Of a stretch of 64,000 nucleotides of DNA, positions 7,699-62,000 are shown in pieces. Position numbers and translations under genes: made by a program. Below the pieces are notes generated by a model. The model did not search any database. It was given only the letters and a program-made list of their open reading frames with translations, and had not been told where the DNA came from. The DNA is from Homalodisca vitripennis (lineage: Eukaryota; Arthropoda; Insecta; Hemiptera; Cicadellidae): the NCBI RefSeq assembly GCF_021130785.1, contig NC_060215.1, positions 117,452,501 through 117,516,500 on the forward strand, given 5' to 3'. How positions within the stretch are numbered: position 1 is the stretch's first letter; each line of letters opens with the position of its first letter.

Positions 7699-8258
<560 letters not shown>

Positions 8259-8777
8259 GGCACTGGAGGTGCGGGCTCCAGTATTGAGGGGAGGGGTGGT
8301 CGGCTCTCGTGGCGCAGTGCTCTGGCACAGCTGAACTGGTGTGTGCTCATGTGCTTGTGCTACACTGTTCACCACATCACTCTTGAGGTGGCGGGGGGGG
8401 GGGAGTTCGTAACGAAGAAAGGGTTACATAGTCACACCACATAGACAGAGAGTCGACGGTAAAATGTTTACCTAACTGTTCAGCGCAATAGCTAACCAGC
8501 TCGACTAAGAGGTGCTCGGCACACAATTCTAGTCTGGTAGTGTAACACACTTAAAAGGGGCAACACGAGTTTTTTACATAATTTAGTTCACGCGCAATTC
8601 ACCTTCACTGTTTGCGCACTGCAAGAATACTACAACCGCGTAACCACTTTCTGACGCGTCAGAGAACCCACGTATTTCGTAGTTTATTGGTTCATTCAAC
8701 TGTAGAGGACGTGGTATAGGGAGATGTCAGTCACACACCTTGTTGACACAAAATAATTCCACTGTTGGGCGAGTTCA

Positions 8778-33741: not shown

Positions 33742-35546
33742 TTATTTAAAACAGTAAAAATGCATCAATAATGGCTAGAGTGAATAATTTTGTTTTCCCA
33801 TCAATAGGCATGTATTGATCGCTCTTATTTTGTACACTGGTATTAATTGTTTGTATCAAAACTCCCTAACAGAGTGGAATATAAAAATGTACAATTTTGA
33901 TTAAGGTAATTTCGTGATTGCTCAATACTGCAATCGCTAAATTATGTTGCATGTTCAGTTTTATATCCTCATGATGGAAGATTGGTGGTCCGCAGAAATA
34001 AATGCAGTTTCCACAACAGGAAAGTGAGTAAACGATAGAGAAGTGTGTTTGTTCTCAAACAGGAAATTAAAACTGATTATTATGGGGTGCAATACAAGGA
34101 GTTTGAAATTTTCCATACTCGCATATTTGGCGAACAACTGACTAGTTCAAATGTAGGGTAATGGTATCCTCCGAAGGGTAGTTTTTGGACGTAGCCAACT
34201 TGAACTTTTAATGGCCTCTTGCGCGCTTACTTATTCATACATTGATTCAATGGAACTTGTACACCACACCCATGTTATTTGACAGGGTTTTCTGGTTCCT
34301 ATAGTAATTTTAGAGAGTAAAAAAATGTGTATTTAATTTTTTAGAAATTAGACATTGAAACACGTTTTTTTTTTTTAAGAAAATTTGATCAAAATTGGAT
34401 AACTTTTTTATAAAGTAGGTGTCATGGTAACTCCCAAAGGGAGGTGACCAGGCGTGAAATATATGTTATATATTTATTATTAGGTATAAGAATACACCTG
34501 CAAAATTAAAAAAAAAAATTTATTATGGGAAATGGGATAACCTACAGATCCTAGGGGTCACCGGAAGGTTTAAAACATTTTAAAAGTGTATTAAATCAAC
34601 ATAAAACTTTTTAGATAACTAAGAGTTAATTTATTTTAGGTTAATTTCCTTAGTTGCCATGTATTGTTAAAGTGCAGAATACCTTCATGCCACTTGCTTG
34701 TGAGTTTACGAATACATCTTTGCACAGAGTACAATTTTTACAAGATGATAGTATATTAAAGCCACTTGCACAGCTAAAGTCCTCCATCTATTGCTACAGC
34801 TAAAAACTTGTAGCAATCTAGTGCAAATCAGTAGGTTCTCATGGTACTCATATGAAAGGCTGAACACCTGTGTCAATGTACAAATATAGACTGGATGAAA
34901 GAAAGACAATATATCACCTGTATCTGTATGGAATGAATCTTAATGGGATTGAATAACAACTTTTAATTTCAACAACAACAAAAATGTACTGTCTTATTAT
35001 GATATTAACTTACATATTGTAAAGATATCTCTAGTTTCACAAGAAAAACTAATATATAAAACGATTGTACACGAGAATGTATTATATCTATTTTTAATAT
35101 TATAGTTTCAATAAATTATAGAAAAGACAATTTTAAACTCAAATAGAAATAGGAGGTCAAGGTCAAGCTTTGAAATTGAGCTAAACATGTCATTGTTTAC
35201 ACATAACTTGACTTTGAACTGCCAATAATCATATGAAGAATCATCACTGAATTGATCAAAAACTTGACTTACACCATCTCTATTGGAATTTGTTCTGGTG
35301 TTATTCCAATTTTGTGTTATTTATTTACTGTGATTTATGTACTATGTTGTATGCATGCAGATAGAGTGGGCTGGGTTTAAAGCATTTTAGGACAAATTCC
35401 ACAAGAATGGTATTTTTTATCTTTTCCAAATTTTGAGAAGTATTGACATCCGGTTCTGAGCCTTGTAACTATATAGTAGCCAAAGTAGTGATATCCATAT
35501 ATTGTTATCCCAGCACTTGCTGTTTATTACTTTCAGAGAGACCAGG
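33742..35546. other. Upstream region of the UGT gene
   Basis: AT-rich, with no TE protein or other gene recognised. The UGT promoter and 5' UTR must lie in its right part, but I cannot point to a start site or TATA box with confidence. Confidence 0.3.
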
Positions 35547-35784
35547 ATGAGGTACCTGATCATATGGGTTCTAGCTTTGTGCGTAGTGGACAACGTACTG
35601 TCTATGAGGATACTTGCAGTACTCCCCTTCCCCGGCAAGAGTCATCACATCTTCTCCACAGGAATCATGAGAGCCTTGGCCGAGAGAGGACATGAGATAG
35701 TCGAGTACAGCCCATACCCCCCGGTCAGGCCTATACCCAACCATACACATATCGAATTCCATTCTCGTTTTGAGCAGGAAATAA
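35547..35784 (+). CDS. UGT exon 1
   Basis: Signal peptide and first part of the acceptor-binding domain (residues 1-79 plus one base). The donor is AATAA|GTTAGT, and the split Lys codon is completed in exon 2. An in-frame GTG lies upstream, but the ATG at 35547 gives the proper signal peptide. Confidence 0.9.
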
Positions 35785-38700
35785 GTTAGTTCTCATCTAT
35801 ACTTATTTTTAAATTATGTTCATTTTATTTTAATCCCCTGTTTAATTACTGAAGTATTACTGATTATCAATTAAGGATTATTTGAAGGAATAATACAATT
35901 ATTTAGATTTATCTTTTTTTGGTTAAAAATGAAACATTATGTTTTCAGAACTTATATTTGTGAAAGATTTGAAGTTTAACATTGTTCTTAGGGGCCAAAA
36001 ACTGAGATGGCTGCCAGTAAAGGCTCTTAATAACAAAGATTATGTATTCAGAAAAAATTTCTAATGATTGGAGATACTTGGGCCCAATTTGGGACAGTAT
36101 TGTACCTTTAAAAGGCATTGTAGTAAAAATGAGCATGATTGAAATTAATTATTATCAAAACAGTATCAGAGGCAAAATTAATGATGTAGTATATTACCGA
36201 ATTCTCATGTATTTCAATAATCGATAATCAATTACTGTCAAAATATTATTACAAACATATGCAGCAATACACATTCAATTAATGAAATTTTCATTTATTC
36301 AAAAGTAATGGTACTAGTATACGGATGCATTTAAAATCCATATTAAATAATTTAACTATATTTTGCATAAAAAAAATTTCATCAAAACTACTAAACTGTA
36401 ATTTGCGTTGATTGTTTCTAAAGTTGAGACTGTTCCTCATTAAATATGTGAATAGTAGAAGTTGGTAGAAAATTCATTACAATTTAAAACATCTAATAAT
36501 ATTGTTATATTCCAGAAAGTTGGACCTACGAAGACTTTATGAAGTACCCTGCCCAACGTGATAAAAGCATTTTCGGATTTAAAATTAGAAGAATCTGGGA
36601 AATAAACTATAGTGTATGTGAAGATATGTTACAAAATGAGAAAATTCAATATCTTTTGAGGTCAAAAGAAAAATTTGATGTAGTACTGACTGAAGCCACT
36701 TTTGGGGAAGAATCTATGCTAGTATTTGGACACAGATTTTCTGCCCCCACGGTGTGCATAGAGGGGTTTTTCCCTTGGAGTATTTTAAATAGATATGCTG
36801 GAAATTCACTCTCCATTGCTTCAGTGCCCGACTTCACTTCTATGGTGTTTAAAAATGAGTTATTGTCTTTCAAAGATAGGTTACTGAACTTTATATCAAT
36901 TTCTCGGTCCCTTTTTCACTACTACTACACTCATTTACCTCTTCATGACCAAATACTAAAACAGAATTACAAGTTTTCCAACACACCATCAGTAATAGAA
37001 ATGGTGAAAAATGTGTCACTGTATCTCACAAACTCTCACCCAGCCGTCATCAACTACATACAGCCCTACACCCCTAACATTGTTCCAATTGGTGGGATCC
37101 ACATAAACCCTCAGACCTCATCTGTTCCTCAGGTAAGAACACATTATTTCACATTCTTACTTTTTATATACATAGTGGAATAACTTAACTACCATTTCCT
37201 TTTAACTTATTTAATTTTAAAATAAATCAAACACTCAAGGGAATATCCAGCATACTACTTATTTGGGCCTCCTACCAAAATACAGGGGAGGGGTACTTCA
37301 ACACTTACACCTATCATTCCAATCAATTAAATGAACACTAAAATTAAATCCATCACTATATGCAAAAACTTAACAATACAATAAAAATTAAATTTAGAAA
37401 GATAAAAACTATTTTAAAATGTCAAGTAATGTAAAAGGTATACTCCAAACATTTTTGTTTTATTTTCGTTACTACAGGTCCTAATATACATGGAACTTCT
37501 TTATTTTTCAACCTATACAGTGTTTGTTCCAAATGTTATGCACACTGAAGGGATCTTGGAAACTATAAGAAATACAGCAATTGACAAAGTTGTGCGTAAC
37601 AACAAGACCAACAAATTAATGTGGTCAAGTTGATTATTGGTTCCGTCGTTCACTTGCTGAGCATAAGCAACAGTTTTTGATGAAATTGTAACAGCTCTCT
37701 TATGAAATCTGCATGAGATTTCTTCTAGTCTTTTAAAATTATTATGAAAAAGTTTTCTAGACCAGCAAACAGGAGGTGCAGTATTCTAGTACATTTTTGT
37801 AATGCGATGAAATGACCCATATTTAATAATTCATAAAAAGTGAATTTTAACTGATTTCAAAATTACCATATATGTTTTACTTTCTTCATGGTTTTCATAA
37901 AATAATAAATAAAAATCCATTTTTCTATGGTTGTGTGATCTACTACTCGGATAGGTGGTAAATCTAACTGATATATCACTGCACGCAGTGTTGAAATCAG
38001 CTGTAAAACATACAAATATTAGACAAGGTCAGTCTAAAAATGACTGTCACTAACTTTTTTTTAATTGATTAACAATACAATAGTTTGTTATATTCAAATT
38101 GTATCACAATTTATAACAAAAAATAAATAATAAAAATCATAATATAAAACAATTGAGGAGCTGGGTGCAAAAACGACCTGAGCAGCATCGGGTCGTTTTT
38201 GCGTAAAACATCTTAAATACACGGCCTTTTAATTCCTAACATTTTGGTGTTTGTTTCATTCCAATATCTTTGAAATTGGCTGAACCGTGGATTTTTTTTG
38301 CAGCAGTGTTTGACTTGATGATCACCTGTTGGACGTAAACACTAACACTTTGCTGTCTGCTGTGTTATTGTGAAGATTGTTTGGTTATGCGTCCATCGTT
38401 TTATTGGCGTAGTTAATAAGTGTCTTTTATTAGTGAATAATTAAGTGTCTTTACAGTTCTCATCCATGGAAACTGACAATGAAATGTCTGATGAAGAAAA
38501 GTCTGATGCTGAAATGTCTAATGACTCAAGTGAACTTTCAGAACATAGTGATCCTGGACCTTCGCGTAAGAGAGGGAGACGAAAGGAACGTGATAGCAGT
38601 ACGTGGAAAAGAAATGTAAATAAAAAGAGGCGAGCTGAAGGTAAATCATTTGTTAAAAATACAATAAGGGGAAATGTTAAAGTTAAGGGTAAACAGTTTT

Positions 38701-41700
38701 CTGTCGTAACAACATGTTGCCCAAAGAAATGTTGTGATCGAGTTTTGAGAGCCCAACAAAATAAGATATTTGAAAATTTTTATGCATTGGGTGACAAAGC
38801 AAACCAAAACTTGTATTTATCAGGATGTATGTTGAATAAGGACATTTTGACTCGGAGTACTAATGCAACAAAACCTGTTGAAGCATTGTGGGAGTACAAC
38901 ATAAATGTACCAGAACTTAACGTAAGACATGCAACATGTCGAGAGTTTTTGCTTAAACTATTTCAAATATCTTTAGAAGAATACGTACTGTTCAGGATAC
39001 TCTAAAGAAAGGGAGCCTAGATTTTAAAGAAAAAAGAGGTACTCATAACAACAGGCCTACCAAAATAGATGACTCTGTGTGGAATTTGGTAGAAGAGCAT
39101 TGGGCCTCATTACCCAATACCCCTTCACACTACGCTGCAAAAAAAAGCAAGCGACTCTATTTTGATAATTCCTCACTCACTGTTACAGCGCTTTTCCACT
39201 TGTTCAAAAAATATTTTCAAGAAAAAACAAACACACCTCTCTCCAAGATGAAATACAACACTTACTTTCAATACTTCAAAAAGAACTCTCCCTACTCATT
39301 TAGAAAACCTAGGTCAGATACTTGTGACATGTGTGAAAAGCTCAACTTTAAGTTAAAAGAAAATCCTAGTGACATGAACACAAAGACTATGTTGCAATTA
39401 CATGAAAAAAAGGTTGCTGCTTACAAAGATTTAAAAAATAAAATGGTAGAAAAAGCAAAATCTAATGACACTCACAGTCTATTGTTGGAGTTTGACTACG
39501 GTCAAAATTTGCCACTGCCAAAATTGACAGTAAATTCTGTATTTTATAAAAGACAGCTGTGGTATTACGTGTTTAATATTCACTGCCATAACAATAACTC
39601 TAGCACTATGTATACCTACCTAGAGACTGAGTGTACTAAAGATCCAGATACTGTAGTTTCTTTTTTGTACCACTACATAGACAACAGACTAAAAGAGAAT
39701 AAAAACTTCAAAGAAATCATTTTGATGTCAGACAATGCTGGAGGTCAAAATAAAAATCATAAAATGCTTATGTTTTGTTCATTTCTGGCTGTAAAGTTCA
39801 AAATTAAAGTTAGCCAGTTATTTCCTGTAAGAGGCCACTCTTACTGCCAGTGTGACCGCAACTTTGGGGCCTATTCAAACGTTTTAAGAAAAACTGCGAG
39901 AATGGCCACAACTCAAGAGTATGACAAAATAATTTCCAGTAAGTCTGAGCTGGTTCATGGATATCAACATTTGAAAAACTGGAGTGCTTCGTTACTTGAC
40001 TACTTCTTAGAATACAAGAATATAGTTTCAAAAAAAACTTCTTTCAAAATCCAGCAATACTGCAGGCTCCAGTATAACCCATCAGGGACCATCTCAGCCT
40101 CCTCCAGCTACCTCGGTTCATTCATCCCATTCAACTTCCTTGTAAAGGGGGCCAACCTGAACCTTTTTATCCCTGAAGATATTCCTGGTATGCCAAGAAA
40201 ACAGTTAAAACCAGCAAAAGAGAAAGACTTAACAAGTCTGTTCTGCTTTTTAAGTGCAGAAGAACAGTGTTGGTTCAATGATGTCATTGAAAAGCCCAAA
40301 GTAGATGACAATGTGGTCGCAGAAAACGAAGAAAGTGACATTGAAGAGGAGTCGGACTATGAAAACATACTCGCCTATGAGTTTCCTTAAACATTGTTCA
40401 CTTTTCAAAGTTTAAAAAAACATTGAAATATGATCAGTTCAATTTTGAACTAATTTTTTCATTAATCCTTAATTAAGTTAATTTCTAACAAATGCTTTAT
40501 TTGTATTTTTATACCAATTTGAATTATTAATAATAATAATATTTTTAAGACTGCAGTGTTTTAGTGCCATTATTTCAAACAGTATCCTTGTAATTTTTCC
40601 CAACCTATACTTTTATGCAAAAACGACACGTGACACTAGCTACTATTATGTTTAATAACTTTGGTATAAAAAATGATATCACTTAGCAACAGATATATTC
40701 TTTAACTAGAAGAATATAATGTTACAGAATATTACAATGTACAGCACTATAAAAAATATAATAAAAAGAAAAAATCATGTCTAACTTTCAAAGCCCGTTT
40801 TCTCAAAACTCACTTTTCAGACTCAGGTCGTTTTTGCACCCAACTCCTCAATTACACAACCTAATTAAATCTGAACACAGGTTATTTTACTCTAACTAAA
40901 AGACACCGCTGACCCGCACGGTTAAAAGACTTGGCAACATTGGATGTTTTGATTTGGGAATAAATGAATAACAACTTTTATATCCATAGAGTTCAAATTT
41001 TTGTAGGATGTGTGTGATGCAAATGCTTTATTGAACACATTTTGTAAAAAGCTACTTCAAAAACTGTATCTCTAAGTTTACGTTCTTATTACATAACACA
41101 AATAAGAAGTAGTATAATGGAGACTCCCTAAAGCGTTTGATTTCTTTAAATATTAAACAAGTTAAAAGTCAGTTTATTCAAATTTATTCTACAACTGTGT
41201 CCATCTAATCTTTGCTGTATCACTTATACTTTCCAAGATCCCTTTAGTGTGCATACAATTCTGAACACACTGTATATTTGTTTTCAAATATTTTTTTTTC
41301 GTATAGTGTTTGATGATTTCTCTTATGTAATATTATAAAAAAAGAATTAAGGTGGTTTGAAATTCTAATGATAAATTAAAAATGGATGATTTAATCCATC
41401 ATTAATTACGCATTAGAATTTCAGGTTTTGGTCTGAAAATAAAGAGCAAAAGATAAACTTATTATGCAATTGTGACAGATATAAAGTAAAAACTTTAACT
41501 TTAAACTAAAAATCCCTGTATGAATTTTTTCAAAACTTATCATGAAGACTGGAATCACTTAGAATTACTAAAAAAAACTTTACAGAGTTGCAATAGTAGC
41601 AATGATGAATGCTCTGACAGTGAATAATACAGAAACTGTGAATTTTTTACAGTACTGTAATGAAATTCCAGCCTCTATATTCTCCAGATATGATTCTGTG

Positions 41701-44700
41701 TGACAATTTTTATTAAAAAAATATGGAGAACCTTAAACTTCCTCAGTAATTCACTATAAGCTAAGGTTTATCCATATTATCACTGCTGCAAACATGTATT
41801 AATCCCTTTTTGATTAAACTATTTAGCTTCCAATATAAGCACGACTATCTTTAAAGGTTTCATCACAAACATGTTCTAGGATGTTTTAAAGTTTATGGAT
41901 GATGCTAAAGAAGGTTTCATATACTTTGGTCTGGGGTCCTTGGTCCCCACACATCTCATGCCAAACGAGGTTCTCAATACATTTATCAACGTGTTCAGAA
42001 AGCTGCCTCAGAGGGTTCTGTGGAAAATCGATTCCAGAAATTTATCAAACCTGCCTAGTAATGTGATGACCAAGCCGTGGACTCCTCAACTTAATGTGTT
42101 AGGTAAGATGGTGGAAACATTTTCAAAAGTAATTTGTTCATTAGATGATCTACTTAAATAATTATAAGGGTATGCCAATGCAAATCAATATGCTACTGGA
42201 GTATTTTGTCTACTCTGATTGTACATAACATTAACACTTGTTAGCTCAATGTACTTATTAACAAAATAATTTCTCGTATTAAGTAAATCTTAAAAATAAA
42301 TAGAATCATCACTCAAAGAGTTGGAAGGAAAAATTCTGTATACATAAAAGAATTAAAACTATTACTGAATTTGAAGAGTTTGAGAAGCAATTGATGAGCC
42401 AACATATTTTTTGATATTGTCACATAGTATTCATATTTTACTGTATAAATAATATTTTGATTTAATTAAAAATAAATGCTGAGAAAAGAATTATAATTCG
42501 AAATTAACCATTTTGGTGTAGTAGCACTATGCAATAATTAACCTATTACTTATATACCATGCTTTTACCAATTAATTGTTATGAAAACGATTCTTTGTGC
42601 TGAGTAAACCTAATTTGCACCAAATTTATTAGATCAGTCAAGCAGTAGTACCTTCTTACTAGGACCAATGTATTTTCAATACAAAAATTACACTTGATTG
42701 TGCTATTGTACATTATTAATGAAAGCATGAAATAAAAGCAGTCCAAGGATTGAGCCTTGTGGAATTTGATATTCCAGCTTTCAGATTGAATTTTAAGTTG
42801 TTTATAGTTCAAAGAGTCATGTACATACGCCATGCCATAAATTGTTAAACAAATATTACCACAGTTTTAAAATAAGCTATCATCAAGCTCTTAAAATTTG
42901 GCAGCAAAAAATGCTGGATACTTATTTATAACAGCTGAATAGATAGCCCTATAGAATGAGATCTATGACCTGAGTAATTTCACTAAGCCTGCTTAGTTTA
43001 TCAGTAGTGTGTTTTAGTAGTGAATAGAGTTGTTGTTCCGTGGTTGAGGTTAACAGTTATCATTAAGAGGGTTTACGGATGACTCACCAAGGCCTAGCCG
43101 ATAAGGAGTTATCTATTTCTTATTCGAAAAGTTTGATGTTTGAGGTAGAATAACAGGGAAATATTGATCAGAATCAGAATTTTTTATTTAGCATGAATGT
43201 ATTTCTTCTATTTTCAGTAATGTCAATATTTTAGCTTTGGTTTTATTACTTAGAGGTGTTTAATACTCAACAGCCAATTTACATGTTGAAATGTCGAGTT
43301 TCGTGAAGCTAAGTACTGGATGAAAAAGTTTGTCTAGTTAAAATAATGAACCTTTTTTTCAAAGGAGGGGCCATTCCACTTTTTAGCCTTATTCTGCCCT
43401 GACCTGTGTGAGGATCTTATCAAACAGAACAAGTAGAAGAGCCAGTACAGTACAAGGTCAACAGTACTCATAAAAAGTGACACAGGCAGGATTTGAACCA
43501 GCTGTATCACTAACTTAGAGCCAAAGCATGATGCTTTAGACCGTGAGGTTACCGGCTCAAAACAATTTAAATATTTTTCCTACCATTTTTAATACCACAT
43601 TGTGATGGTGTTGATTCACACATTAAAATAGTGTTTGAAATATGGAGAACTCAGAAGTGTAGTGACACCAAAGCAATGTTCTCTTATTGGTTAGAGTATT
43701 ACATTGTATACAACTTGTTTTATTGTTGACTACATAAGGCTTTTATGAATTCAATATAAACATGAGTTTTTTATAAACAGATTTACTGCTGAATTATATT
43801 AATAACAGATGGTTTGAGCTGCTTTGGGGTCTTGTGCTAGCTTCTCAGCATCTGGTGTACAGAGCCAAATTTCAACGGGGTTATTTAAGAGATTTTGAAG
43901 ATTAATATGATTTTATTAATGTTTATTTTAATCATAAGATGCCATCTGTGTAGAAAAACATCAAATTCCTTAAATTAAAAAGTGAAGTTTTATACAGTGA
44001 AATGTGAAAAGTTTATAAATATATATGAAGGTAAGTGCAACAAGAATATCACAAGTTTGTATGCTGATATCCATTTATACTTGGAGGATCATGTAACAAA
44101 GACCTCTTTAGAGCATTCTGCATTATAACATTATTAAACATTTGTTCATTGAAGGTTTTGAACATGTGTGATAAGTCAAACTTATTACATAATTTTCCTT
44201 AGAATAGACATTATGTTGCCCTGTCTGAAAAATGTATTAATTGAGATTCTGCAATGTCATGTCATTACATTCTCAATGGTTCATATAAGCCTATACAGAA
44301 CATTTTGAAATCTGAATATGATGACAGCTTACTGCAGTTACGTTTATTAATCAATACTGTAAACTAACATTCACAGTTCATATAGGAGATTGTAATTTTT
44401 ATAACATATACAGAGTTAAATGTATACAGTAATAAGTTTTATGAGTAAAATAGATAACAGGAGGCAAGTTTATAAATCAAATTTGAAACTTCATAAAGGA
44501 TTGAAGTATTCCACATAATTTTGAGGCATTAAAGGTATATTTTAAGTATAATATTTTAACTTTACATTTTAATTAAGATAGTATTTTATATTATTCATTT
44601 TAACCATGTAAAATTTAATGACTAAAAGGGAATTTTCATTTAATTTCACGTTTGTTTAAATAATTTTCAAGTTTATAGTGATACCGAAATATTTTGTAAA

Positions 44701-47700
44701 TGATTTTAATGAAGTATAAGTATGTCTGTTTAAAAATAAGTCAGAAATTTAAAAGTTTCTTTTAAAATTAAATGACAGGATAAAGACCTAAAAAAGTTGA
44801 AACCATTCATCAAATTTCTTAAACTCTTTTCTTTCACTATATATCACATGTTATAACTTCTATTACTGTATTGCAGGTCATAAAAATTGTAGACTCTTCA
44901 TAACCCATGGGGGATTGTTCAGCCACCAGGAGGCAATACACGCAGGTGTACCAACTGTAGGTATTCCGTTCTTCGCAGACCAACCCTATAATGTGCAATA
45001 TAGCCAACTCCGTGGACGCGGTGTGTGGCTGGACTTTGCTACTCTCTCCGAAGAGACCTTTACCGAAGCGATTTCCAAGGTTCTTAATAATTCCCAGTAA
45101 GTTGCAAAGTACATTAAATTGAGTTCGGATATATTTTTAGAATGATTGCTGTTTAAGTTGCAATTTCAAACCAGCAATCCAAGCATTTTTTAGATACAGG
45201 ACTTCCCTTTTTTCACAATCTTTTGCTTGGGGACTAATGGTAATTGTGGTACTAACCTGGCTTTGGACAATAGATTGGAGAGCTAAAATATGAAATATTT
45301 AAACTGCTTAAAACAAAAGCAAAATATTTTGCATAGAAATTAAATATCTTTTTCATGTTTTTTGGTTCTTGTATACATAGAGTAAAGTACAGCAAAATAT
45401 AAAAGTATTGAAAGAATAATACTGACACTGAAGAGCTACCATAAGGTTGTGTTCCCATTGGAAGCATGCTTGGGCAAGTAAAATGGAAGTGCACACTTGG
45501 CCAAGGATGCCCAAACTAGGCTTGCGGTCGCACTGTTTGAAGAAATTAAAAGGCAAGTGAATGCTTCCCAGGTATAATTGCATCAGAAGATGAGAATACG
45601 TTCCTTGAAAACGACTTTTTATTGGTTTTTAATGTTTTATTGTTATACAGGGTGCGGCAGCATAACTTCCTTTTTTAAAATGCACGCCATTCAGTTAGTT
45701 GATGTCATAGCGGAGCGCTAGTGGTCTCATTCAAAAGGGGGTACTGTAAAGTTTTGTCCCGACACGGTTCAGTCGCCATGATGCGTTGGAATAGTAAGGA
45801 GCGTGCCTTTGCCGTTGAGGCCTACTTTTCAAGCGGATGTTCAGTTATTGCAACACAGCGTGCATTTCGGAATCACTTTAATTTAGCCCCGATGGCTCCC
45901 GTCCCAGACCGCATATCAATTGTTACATGGGTCACTACATTCAGACAAACTGCAAGTGCGACAAAACGAAGAACTGGAGTCCCTCGGCCCGTTAGATCAC
46001 CTGAGAACATTGAAGCAGTGAGAGCGTCAATGTTGCGATCACCACGGCGTTCTGCGCGCAAACACGCATCTGCCCTTGGACTATCCGATCGTTCTGTGAG
46101 AAGAATTCTTCGTGATGATCTTCATTTTCATCCCTATAAGATGGCGATAGTGCAGGAACTTTCAGAACGTGATTTCAATTCTCGGATGAACGCGTGTGAG
46201 CTTTTTCTTGATGTCGTTCCCGAGGGTGCTATTGTTTTTTTTAGCGATGAAGCCCATTTTCATTTGAGTGGGTCGGTTAACAAACAAAACATGCGCTACT
46301 GGGCTGACACCAACCCTCAAGAATTGCATCAAAGACCTTTGCATTCACCGAAAGTCACAGTGTGGTGTGCAATTTCCTTAGCTGGAATTATTGGTCCCTG
46401 GTTTTTTGAGGAAAATGAGGTTACAGTGACAGTGACTTCGGATCGATATGTAAACATGCTACAGAATTTTTTTTTCCCACGGCTAGAAGATTTGGATTTG
46501 GGGGACACTTGGTTCCAACAAGACGGTGCAACAGCACACAATTCGAGAGCATCGATGGCTGTTTTGAGGGAAAACTTTCCAGAGCGCCTTATCTCAATTA
46601 GAGGCAATTTGGAATGGCCGGCACGCTCTCCCGATCTGTCACTTTGTGATTTTTTTTCTACGGGGTTTTTTGAAATCCCGTGTTTATGTGAACCGTCCAA
46701 GAACTCTACAAGATTTGAAGACTAACATCCGAGAAGAAATTGCCAACATAACACCTGCTACGCTAACAACAGTCATGACAAATGCCAGAAATCGGCTTAC
46801 GCAATGTATGGAGAATGGGGGACGTCACCTAACAGATTTGATCTTCAAAACAATGTAAATAAAAACTTTAGACATGTACCTACATTATAAAAAATGAATA
46901 AATATTTTCTGATGCATACAATAGTCTTTATTGAGTTTTGAAAAAAGGAAGTTATGCTGCCGCACCCTGTATTATGAACCATTTAGAGGAAAATGGGTTA
47001 ATTAATACTTTGCAGACAGAGTAGAAGATGAAGACATTTTTCAGGGCCTTTATTATGGTCTCTGTTGCTATGCAACTAGGTAAGTTGTATCCCATATTGC
47101 TTTTTCCTTTAATTGCAGCTATGAGTAATTCAGTATCCATAATAAGAATTAATTAACAACAACTAAACTAAGCACACTAGTAATAACATTACTGTGTCAC
47201 TGCCCTCTGGAAGAATGAGCATGACAGTAGAAACAATCTTTTGTTTCCTGACAGAGGTGGCACAAGTTTGAAACTTGCGCCTGTCATTGGTGATCAGTGA
47301 ACGGCACAGGCAAGTTGCCACTAGTTTGTATCCCACATCAAAAAGATTTTTAAAGACACACTTGACCAAGTGTGCACTTCCTGTTTACTTGCCCCAGTGT
47401 GCTTCCAATGTGAATGCAGCCTAATTGACATTGGAGGTCCCTTAAGTACAATAACTTCAAAATATAAACATTATACTTTGTCAAGATCGTACACATGTGA
47501 AAAAAATATGTACAATATTGTAGTTATATAATCATACTGCGATTGGTTAAAAGTAACATATTTGTGTCTTCCTCCATCTCTGTTGGCATATATGTTTTTA
47601 AATGTATTTAGAAAACTATTTTTATGTTCATTATTATTGAATTTAGATACATACAAGATATTGAAATATATAGTTTAGATTCAACTGCTAACATATCCCG

Positions 47701-60011: not shown

Positions 60012-62000
60012 AAAAAAAAGGTATAGGAATGAATTAACACTAGCAAAAAAAGTTGCAGTTGAGCAGTATATTAGTAAAGCTCCTAACCAATGCAGGGCTG
60101 CTTGGAAGGTGATTAGTAATGAACACTCACCTACACACAGTCAAGATGTAAATTTGGATCCTGAGGAATTCAACCAGTATTTCATAAACTCAATTAAAAG
60201 AGCTTAGTGAAGGAATTCCCCCAGCCACCATAGTCCTGATTACTTTCTGAGGGAGAACGAATGATTGATCAAAATTCATTTGTTTGGCTAACAAGTTACA
60301 GCCGAGGATGTTATAAAGGCTGTGTCAAAATTCTCAAATTCAAAAGCTATGGACTATTATTGGTTGTCGAATTTCATTATTAAAAGTACTATTGAATTTA
60401 TAAGTGAACCCCTAGCGATAATTTTAAATAACTGCATGAATGAGGGTTTTTTTCACCTTTACTAAGGTTAGTGTCAAAAGTTACTCCAGTGTTTAAGAAA
60501 GGTGACAAAAATTGTGTACATAACTATCGTCCAATCTCAATTGTCCCTATATTTTCTAAAATTTTTTGAATCAATTATGTACAACAAGCTGAATGGCTAT
60601 TTTGAGTTTCATAATTTAATTTCAAATAGTCAATATGGCTTCCGCCAGGGAAGATCTACAACTTCGGCTGTATTAAACATAATTGATCATACCCTAGAGG
60701 CTTTTGAAAAAAAGGATTCCTCTTCATTAGTTTTTATGTGACCTCAGTAAAGCATTTGACAGTGTCCTTGTTGATGTTCTTCTTGATAAGCTTGCATTTT
60801 ACGGTGTTAGTAATTGTGCTTTAAGACTTATTAAGTCATATCTTTCCAATAGATTGCAATATGTATGTGTCAGGAATAAATGCTCTCAAATGAAAACCGT
60901 GGAAACTGGTTTTCCACAGGGTTCTATTTTCTTGGGCCTTTTTTCTTTATTGTTTTATATTAATGATCTTCCTAAAAACCTCAATACTCATTCAGTGATT
61001 TACGCTGATGATACCACCTTACTTTCTAGTCATCATAATTTTAGACTGTTTGGCACAAAATTACCCAACAATCTGAGAAGAGGGCTTATGAATGGTTTGC
61101 AGCAAATAAGCTAGCATGCAATTTGGATAAAACACAGTGTATTACTTTAAGCCTCAAACAGGAAATAAAATTTGGTATCGGTCAAGCTCCTAGGAATTAA
61201 TGTAGACTCAAAATTAAACTGGTCAACTCATATAGATACTGTCTGTAACAAAATCTCAAGAGTAAATTACTTACTTTGGAAAACTCAAAAGTTTTGTTAG
61301 TCCAGAGTATTTAAGATTGGCATATTTTGGGCTTTTTCAGTCGCACATATTGTATGGTCTACTTGTATGGGGTCATTCTTCACATGTCATTGACATTTCT
61401 TGTGCTACAGAAAAAGGCTGTTCGTAATATTGGAGGAGCCAACCCACTTGAACACTGCAAACCTCTTTTTGTACAATTTCAAATTCCCACAATAGTAAAT
61501 CTTTATATTTTTCAAGTTTTATTGTATACAAAAATCTAATTTGAATCTTTTTCATACAAGACAGGAGATCCATCAATACAACACTAGGGGAAGGAATAAG
61601 ATTGATATATTGCCTCACAGACTAGCTAAAACTAAAAGCTCGTTTAAATTAAATTTTATAAATTTTTTTAATAAGCTGCCTGATGATGCGAGACTTGTTT
61701 CCTTTAAAATATTTAAAAAAAAGTTATATGATTGGCTAGTGAAAAATCCTTTTTACAGCATTGAGGAATTCATGAATTGCCATATTAATGTTAGGTTTTA
61801 GTTTATAACTAACTATAATTATTTTTATTTATTGCTACTTTACTTAAATTTCATGTGAACTTTTTACAACACTTTTGTGTTAATGCAATTTTTAGCTCTA
61901 ATAATGTATGTAATTTTAAAATGACTTGTCCTATTTTCTGTAAACAGATCAATGGAATAAATGATTCTTATTCTTCTTATTCTTATTCTTATTCTTATAA
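60012..62000 (+). mobile_element. 5'-truncated LINE, Jockey/CR1-like
   Basis: + strand reverse transcriptase pieces in order: NYRPIS-like block with FLKFFESIMYNKLN (60540-60590), SQYGFRQGRSTTSAV (60631-60675), DLSKAFDSV (60740-60770), ETGFPQGSIFLGLF (60902-60943, with an insertion), VIYADDTTLLSS (60995-61030) and the C-terminal LPDDARLVSFKIFKKKL ending in a stop at 61801. The catalytic YADD is intact, but frameshifts break the ORF. It ends in an ATTCTT-type tandem tail at about 61964-61998. No endonuclease, so it is truncated at the 5' end. Confidence 0.82.

What the first reader, a model, noticed from the sequence alone, without database searches (positions are those of the whole stretch)
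38155..40849. Nearly intact DNA transposon carrying an uncharacterised DUF7869-like protein
Seen: a 2695-bp unit with 28-bp terminal repeats (one mismatch), AATT at both edges, repeated GCAAAAACGAC motifs just inside the ends, and one long gene of about 640 codons broken by a single frameshift. Known: this protein family is common in insects but, as far as I recall, has no assigned function. Inference: the aspartates in EFDYGQNL, LMSDNAGGQ and CQCDRNFG form a DDD catalytic triad and the family is a transposase, perhaps near the Sola group, which also makes 4-bp duplications.
Basis: partly seen in the sequence, partly recalled or inferred. Interest (0 to 1): 0.8.

Follow-up and report, generated by a model that had tools for sequence, protein, structure and literature searches.

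The report
Young transposon with DUF7869 transposase
A stretch of this unnamed, probably insect genome is a recently active jumping DNA element whose single gene, filed in databases as a protein domain of unknown function, is almost certainly the enzyme that moves it.

Summary
Window 38155-40849 is a 2,695-bp DNA transposon with 28-bp inverted ends (one mismatch), flanked by AATT. The genome holds 23 near-full places at 97-100% identity. 21 of 23 distinct insertions with both ends have a perfect 4-bp target duplication (AATT 14, ATTT 2, ATAT 2, AAAT 2, AATA 1). Empty sites with one 4-mer exist for the three insertions tested. The 50 matches to the end sequence all lie at copies of this element (compared by eye). 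The window copy is frameshifted; three of 29 places read have an open frame of 640-641 codons. The protein carries Pfam DUF7869. Models for two families give a confident RNase H-like core; by secondary structure D344, D423 and D464, invariant in 81 sequences, sit at DDE/D positions. All structural matches listed are transposases or integrases. Three further DUF7869 families here have inverted ends and AWWT duplications, one of them on a single copy. So DUF7869 belongs to a transposase. AWWT is the published Sola2 duplication; membership is likely but no Sola2 protein could be compared.

The parts
38151..38154 (.). 4-bp target-site duplication, left copy (AATT)
   Evidence: empty sites of other copies show one 4-mer
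38155..38182 (+). 28-bp terminal inverted repeat, left (GAGGAGCTGGGTGCAAAAACGACCTGAG)
38167..38177 (+). GCAAAAACGAC motif inside the TIR; candidate transposase binding site (inferred)
38192..38202 (-). GCAAAAACGAC subterminal motif, inverted
38466..39002 (+). 5' piece of the transposase gene: 179 codons, the last few out of frame (the frame breaks near 38,973-39,003)
   Evidence: uninterrupted frame in L013, L014, L015
38957..40390 (+). open stretch in the second frame: the rest of the transposase gene, with the catalytic core and DUF7869
   Evidence: (PF25273, E 2.6e-12 on 39011-40387)
39494..39496 (+). codon of first catalytic Asp (EFDYGQNL; D344 of the 641-aa protein), end of strand 1
39731..39733 (+). 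codon of second catalytic Asp (SDNAGGQ; D423), just after strand 4
39854..39856 (+). codon of third catalytic Asp (GHSYCQCDRNFG; D464), start of the following helix
40617..40627 (+). GCAAAAACGAC subterminal motif, right side
40822..40849 (-). 28-bp terminal inverted repeat, right
40827..40837 (-). GCAAAAACGAC motif inside the right TIR
40850..40853 (.). 4-bp target-site duplication, right copy (AATT)

Best explanation
38155-40849 is one copy of a young, low-copy TIR DNA transposon. Its only long gene, of which DUF7869 is a part, encodes a DDD transposase with an RNase H-like core. The transposase probably binds the terminal and subterminal GCAAAAACGAC sites, pairs the two ends, cuts the element out and joins it to both strands of a new site with a 4-bp stagger, preferring (Y)AWWT(R). 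Gap filling leaves the 4-bp duplication. Shown: ends, 4-bp duplications, empty sites, intact frames; by prediction, the fold with an invariant triad. Inferred: DNA binding, cleavage, cut-and-paste rather than replicative movement, recency from low divergence, and current activity. By published target preference the family is most likely Sola2 or a close sister (about 60%).
Against: Foldseek gave no match at E <= 1e-3 (best 9.3e-3, NurA; Tn7 TnsB 1.2e-2; the list also holds Argonautes and MutSbeta). Sequence profiles find no solved relative: one unrelated chain at E 0.97, none at E <= 1. Two of 23 sites lack matching 4-mers (L030, L036), as does L049 of family D. One family-D duplication (L089/L090) lies in an AT repeat and is ambiguous. 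Family B is not shown to have duplications. In a third alignment (17 sequences) the triad and DxCxxC are invariant but the His of H313 is not listed. The window copy is frameshifted and its own empty site was not tested. No activity data. No short derivative with both ends was seen.
Confidence: 0.93

Rival explanations
1. DUF7869 transposons form a DDD superfamily of their own, distinct from Sola2, that merely shares 4-bp AT-rich duplications.
For: No Pfam transposase family matches: 73 of 81 members match DUF7869, and the scattered other families listed at E <= 0.1 include no transposase. No paper in the held library names DUF7869 or PF25273. Dictyostelid Sola2 has 12-21-bp TIRs and an 888-aa protein, against 28 bp and 641 aa here. 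No dictyostelid name appeared among the listed relatives.
Against: The AWWT target preference is the one published for Sola2, and 28 bp lies within the 11-1124 bp given for Sola TIRs.
Confidence: 0.27
2. The DUF7869 gene is a passenger carried by a transposon that is mobilised by another enzyme.
For: Some transposons carry other genes; Sola2 elements in dictyostelids carry Fanzor.
Against: It is the only long frame in a 2.7-kb element. It has the transposase fold in prediction and an invariant triad. Families A, C, D and E have different ends but each encodes a protein of this family.
Confidence: 0.03
3. The repeat is a segmental or assembly duplication of a host gene with chance inverted ends.
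For: A few copies share flanks and are probably duplicate contigs (L015/L019/L033, L018/L038, L020/L027).
Against: 23 distinct flanking sites with both ends, 21 with TSDs, and empty sites.
Confidence: 0.01

Closest known systems
Sola superfamily, group Sola2 (Repbase; dictyostelid members in PMC3627910)
   Same: DDD transposase, 4-bp TSDs, mostly 2-9 kb, TIRs of 11-1124 bp (Sola in general: PMC10741241, passages); AT-rich TSDs of the form AWWT including ATAT, AAAT and ATTT (Sola2)
   Different: TIR 28 bp against 12-21 bp and protein 641 aa against 888 aa in the dictyostelid examples; no protein sequence of Sola2 could be compared
Mos1 / Tc1-mariner transposases
   Different: TA 2-bp duplication (PMC10741241, passage), no detectable sequence similarity, extra conserved DxCxxC...H segment before the core and GHS before the third Asp
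Retroviral integrases and IstA
   Same: RNase H-like catalytic core
   Different: Shared fold only; no detectable sequence similarity
Pfam PF25273 (DUF7869)
   Same: Member: 45.6 bits for the intact protein against a cut-off of 26
   Different: In this protein the Pfam match starts at residue 372 (model position 16), so the first catalytic Asp at 344 lies outside it; the Pfam name carries no function

Membership tests
TIR DNA transposon with DDE/D transposase | terminal inverted repeats shared by the copies | tested here: met
   50 genome-wide matches, 25 on each strand, 0 for the pattern read backwards; all 50 at copies, compared by eye
TIR DNA transposon with DDE/D transposase | target-site duplication of fixed length | tested here: met
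   21 of 23 distinct sites with both ends, 4 bp
TIR DNA transposon with DDE/D transposase | empty sites with one target copy | tested here: met
   3 of 3 insertions tested (of 21 with TSDs); 9 of 9 empty sites read, of 40 scored
TIR DNA transposon with DDE/D transposase | RNase H-like core with three acidic residues at catalytic positions | tested here: met
   By predicted model and secondary structure, not by measured distances
TIR DNA transposon with DDE/D transposase | catalytic activity and cut-and-paste movement | not testable with these tools
   needs an excision and integration assay
Sola2 | 4-bp TSD, AWWT | tested here: met
   20 of 21 duplications here fit AWWT, AATA the exception; the duplications of C, D and E also fit; reference statement in PMC3627910 section 11
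Sola2 | DDD transposase | tested here: met
   D344, D423 and D464 invariant in 81 sequences; Sola described as DDD in PMC10741241, passage
Sola2 | protein homologous to Sola2 transposases | not testable with these tools
   no Sola2 protein or profile was at hand; two founding papers looked up are not held
Sola2 | characteristic terminal bases | not tested
   termini here are GAGGAG, GAGGCC, GAGAGC, GAAGCC and GTGTAG; the published Sola2 termini were not seen in any call
piggyBac, Kolobok or Sola3 (TTAA users) | TTAA duplication | tested here: not met
   0 of 21 duplications are TTAA; TTAA for Kolobok and piggyBac from PMC9587614, passage, for Sola3 recalled
Tc1/mariner | TA 2-bp duplication | tested here: not met
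   4-bp duplications, mostly AATT; for TA see PMC10741241, passage
Pfam DUF7869 | score over the curated cut-off | tested here: met
   45.6 bits against 26

The most novel reading that the evidence does not exclude
DUF7869 marks a large DDD transposon superfamily separate from Sola, present in insects, a brittle star, hagfish and fish at least, with its own conserved DxCxxC...H segment and GHS-(4)-D signature and an AWWT target. Its transposases sit in protein databases as 'unknown function' because the Pfam domain omits the first catalytic residue.
Probability: 0.25. Interest if true: 0.7.

Novelty: new member of a known kind. Interest (0 to 1): 0.48.

Why it matters
It gives a function, DDD transposase, to a Pfam family of unknown function, so 'uncharacterized' insect and other animal proteins of this family (named rows) can be re-annotated as transposon proteins. 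The genome search saw 2,647 first-look candidates in this one genome, 150 of them scored. Near-identical copies, some with open frames, defined ends and verified empty sites make the family directly testable as a mobile element; Sola-type elements have, as far as I recall, no biochemically characterised transposase.

Tried and rejected
Searched viral contigs and prokaryote genomes with A1: 124 and 60 stretches matched a pattern, none confirmed as a relative by tblastn. So no bacterial or viral kin at that sensitivity.

Looked for short internally deleted copies with both ends: none among the 50 end matches; such counts are lower bounds.

Tried to reach dictyostelid Sola2 proteins through divergent relatives: none named in the listed rows.

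Bao et al. 2009 and Yuan and Wessler 2011 are not held. Eight further papers were looked at for Sola detail that would allow a sequence test, without gain: PMC10294476, PMC4455052, PMC9587614, PMC5199201, PMC4298943, PMC5753468 and PMC11075540 (passages), and PMC8969392 (no occurrence). A search for recent papers on new superfamilies found none.

Differences from the majority among 22 near-full copies: 57, 53 and 75 at codon positions 1, 2, 3 (641 columns each) and 77 in 984 non-coding columns. That is too little to claim selection; private changes dominate.

Rejected: passenger gene; segmental duplication; TTAA and TA superfamilies (see rivals and membership).

Family G (L052/L053): left end not reached by the fetched stretches and no ends defined. 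L046 joined neither B nor C. Family B: no copy with both ends located; single flanks were AATT, AAAA, ATAA and AGTT, so B is not counted as support for AWWT.

Rows dropped before the TSD count: of the window and 28 fetched loci, L027, L033, L034, L037 and L038 lack one end and L019 repeats the site of L015; 23 remain. Families D and E count L048-L051 plus 5 and 10 further copies; in 3 of those 10 one end was not found in the 201-base stretches fetched.
Full report
What is there. The window lies at G000:C9:117452501-117516500 of an unnamed 2.3-Gb genome in 14,901 contigs; that it is an insect is inferred from its gene content and relatives. The stated unit is real: 32-nt inverted arms at 38151-38182 and 40822-40853, 97% complementary, of which the outer 4 bases are AATT. 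The 11-mer GCAAAAACGAC occurs four times in 64 kb, all near the two ends, as one facing pair at each end (0.01 expected). One gene is split by a frameshift: 38466-39002, and the rest of the frame up to 40390.

Copies. A search with the unit scored 40 of 40 first-look candidates. 23 places are near-full at 97-100% identity, the window's among them. Eight further rows are large fragments of the same family at six loci, two of which are interrupted copies. Nine are weak 68-73% matches, and all nine loci encode stretches similar to this protein by tblastn. Among 22 near-full elements the nearest-neighbour divergence is 0.2-1.3%, the medians are 0.45-1.5%, and the window copy is the nearest relative of 19 of the 21 others. 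I read this star-like pattern as a recent burst. Three of the 29 places read (window plus 28 loci) have one open frame of 640-641 codons (L013, L014, L015).

Ends and targets. A genome-wide search for the 28-bp end with up to 3 mismatches gave 25 matches on each strand and none for the pattern read backwards. Compared by eye, all 50 lie at copies already found, and no short derivative with both ends was seen. Of 23 distinct insertions with both ends, 21 have a perfect 4-bp duplication: AATT 14, ATTT 2, ATAT 2, AAAT 2, AATA 1; L030 and L036 have none. Shuffling right flanks among the sites gives a mean of 9.1 and a maximum of 15 matches in 5,000 trials. The non-palindromic ones (ATTT, AAAT, AATA) show that these are duplications and not part of the inverted repeat. 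Over the 22 loci with duplications (L019, a repeat of the L015 site, included) the base before is C or T in 20, and the base after is A or G in 16.

Empty sites. For three of the 21 insertions (L011, L013, L022), chosen because their flanks looked like repeats when translated by eye, the flanks were joined with one 4-mer and searched. Forty of 139 candidates were scored: 22, 5 and 13 for the three sites, and each covers the junction at 97-99% identity. Nine of these 40 were read base by base, three per site, and 9 of 9 have exactly one copy of the 4-mer and no extra bases at the junction. The other 18 insertions, the window's own included, were not tested.

The protein. Pfam gives only DUF7869, PF25273 (E 2.6e-12 on the 3' piece; 8.1e-12 and 45.6 bits on the intact protein P0001). 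The match starts at residue 372, so the first catalytic Asp lies outside it. Relatives are many: 180 proteins (120 listed), 44 (all listed), 214 (120 listed, and only the 7,989 candidates sharing most words were scored). The named ones are mostly insects, with Myxine, Oryzias and Amphiura besides. In 81 sequences, P0001 and 80 of the 120 listed chosen mainly for length, D285, C287, C290, H313, D344, D423, H458 and D464 are among the 15 invariant positions. In 45 sequences drawn more widely the corresponding positions are invariant again. In a 17-sequence alignment the triad and DxCxxC are invariant, but the His of H313 is not listed.

Other families. The genome search for PF25273 had 2,647 first-look candidates, 150 of them scored, every printed row over the cut-off; 0 of 14 control genomes, of a kind not stated, matched. 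Families were grouped by DNA similarity. Family C has a perfect 28-base inverted pair with the flanking T included (27 bp of end, GAGAGC...), with ATTT on both sides in the one copy with both ends, L042. Family D (GAAGCC...) has perfect duplications in 6 of 7 copies (ATTT 4, AATT 1, and ATAT 1 inside an AT repeat; L049 fails). Family E (GTGTAG...) has them in 9 of 9 copies with both ends found (AATT 7, AAAT 1, ATTT 1); in 3 of 10 extra copies one end was not found in the fetched stretch. Family B has ends beginning GAGGCC but no copy with both ends located. Families D and E encode long DUF7869 proteins (510 and 613 aa frames) with the same triad. Subterminal words recur near both ends in A, D and E.

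Where it belongs. Published Sola traits are a DDD transposase, 4-bp duplications, mostly 2-9 kb and TIRs of 11-1124 bp (PMC10741241, passages). Dictyostelid Sola2 elements have AWWT duplications, with ATAT, AAAT and ATTT named, and TIRs of 12-21 bp (PMC3627910, section 11 read). The match in target preference is close and specific. Protein homology, the defining test, could not be run: no Sola2 sequence was at hand, and the two founding papers looked up are not held. DUF7869 occurs in no paper of the library and PF25273 in none; this covers only open-licence PMC texts. I hold Sola2 at about 60%, a superfamily of its own at about 25-27%.

Mechanism. Shown: defined ends, constant 4-bp duplications, nearly always AWWT, empty sites, intact frames; by prediction, an RNase H-like fold with an invariant triad. 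Inferred: the protein binds the GCAAAAACGAC sites, cuts at the GAG end and joins with a 4-bp stagger; movement is cut-and-paste. The window copy itself cannot make the full protein.

Setting. The element sits on the + strand in what looks like an intron of a UDP-glycosyltransferase gene: Pfam UDPGT matches the open stretch 36539-37180, and further exon-like pieces read by eye lie near 35.5, 41.9-42.1 and 44.9-45.1 kb.

Noticed in passing
window 35500-45100: A UDP-glycosyltransferase gene seems to span the element; Pfam UDPGT in 36539-37180, other exon-like pieces by eye at about 35.5, 41.88-42.12 and 44.87-45.10 kb. The transposon would lie in an intron, same strand.
   Followed up: partly
window 45703-46856: Tc1/mariner-like transposase remnant in two frames; Pfam DUF4817 helix-turn-helix, DDE-like motifs by eye.
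   Followed up: partly
window 60472-61112: Reverse-transcriptase-like pieces (YADDTTLL by eye) in two frames, probably a LINE remnant.
   Followed up: no
window 7723-8375: Long run coding for (SL)n on the minus strand, a simple two-base repeat.
   Followed up: no
L011, L013, L022: Copies nested in other repeats. By eye the flanks of L011 read like another DUF7869 gene (SDGCGYQN), those of L013 like a piggyBac-type gene; empty paralogues were found for all three.
   Followed up: partly
whole genome G000: DUF7869 is very abundant: 2,647 first-look candidates, 150 scored, the printed rows all over the Pfam cut-off, several with frames over 550 codons.
   Followed up: partly
families A, D, E (window; L048; L050): Each has its own word repeated just inside the ends (GCAAAAACGAC, GAGCTATGTGCCA, GTAAGTGCCA), with GTGCCA shared by D and E.
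   Followed up: partly
P0169: A 1,228-aa relative from an ENA contig joins DUF7869 with PF18466; possible fusion or gene-model error.
   Followed up: no
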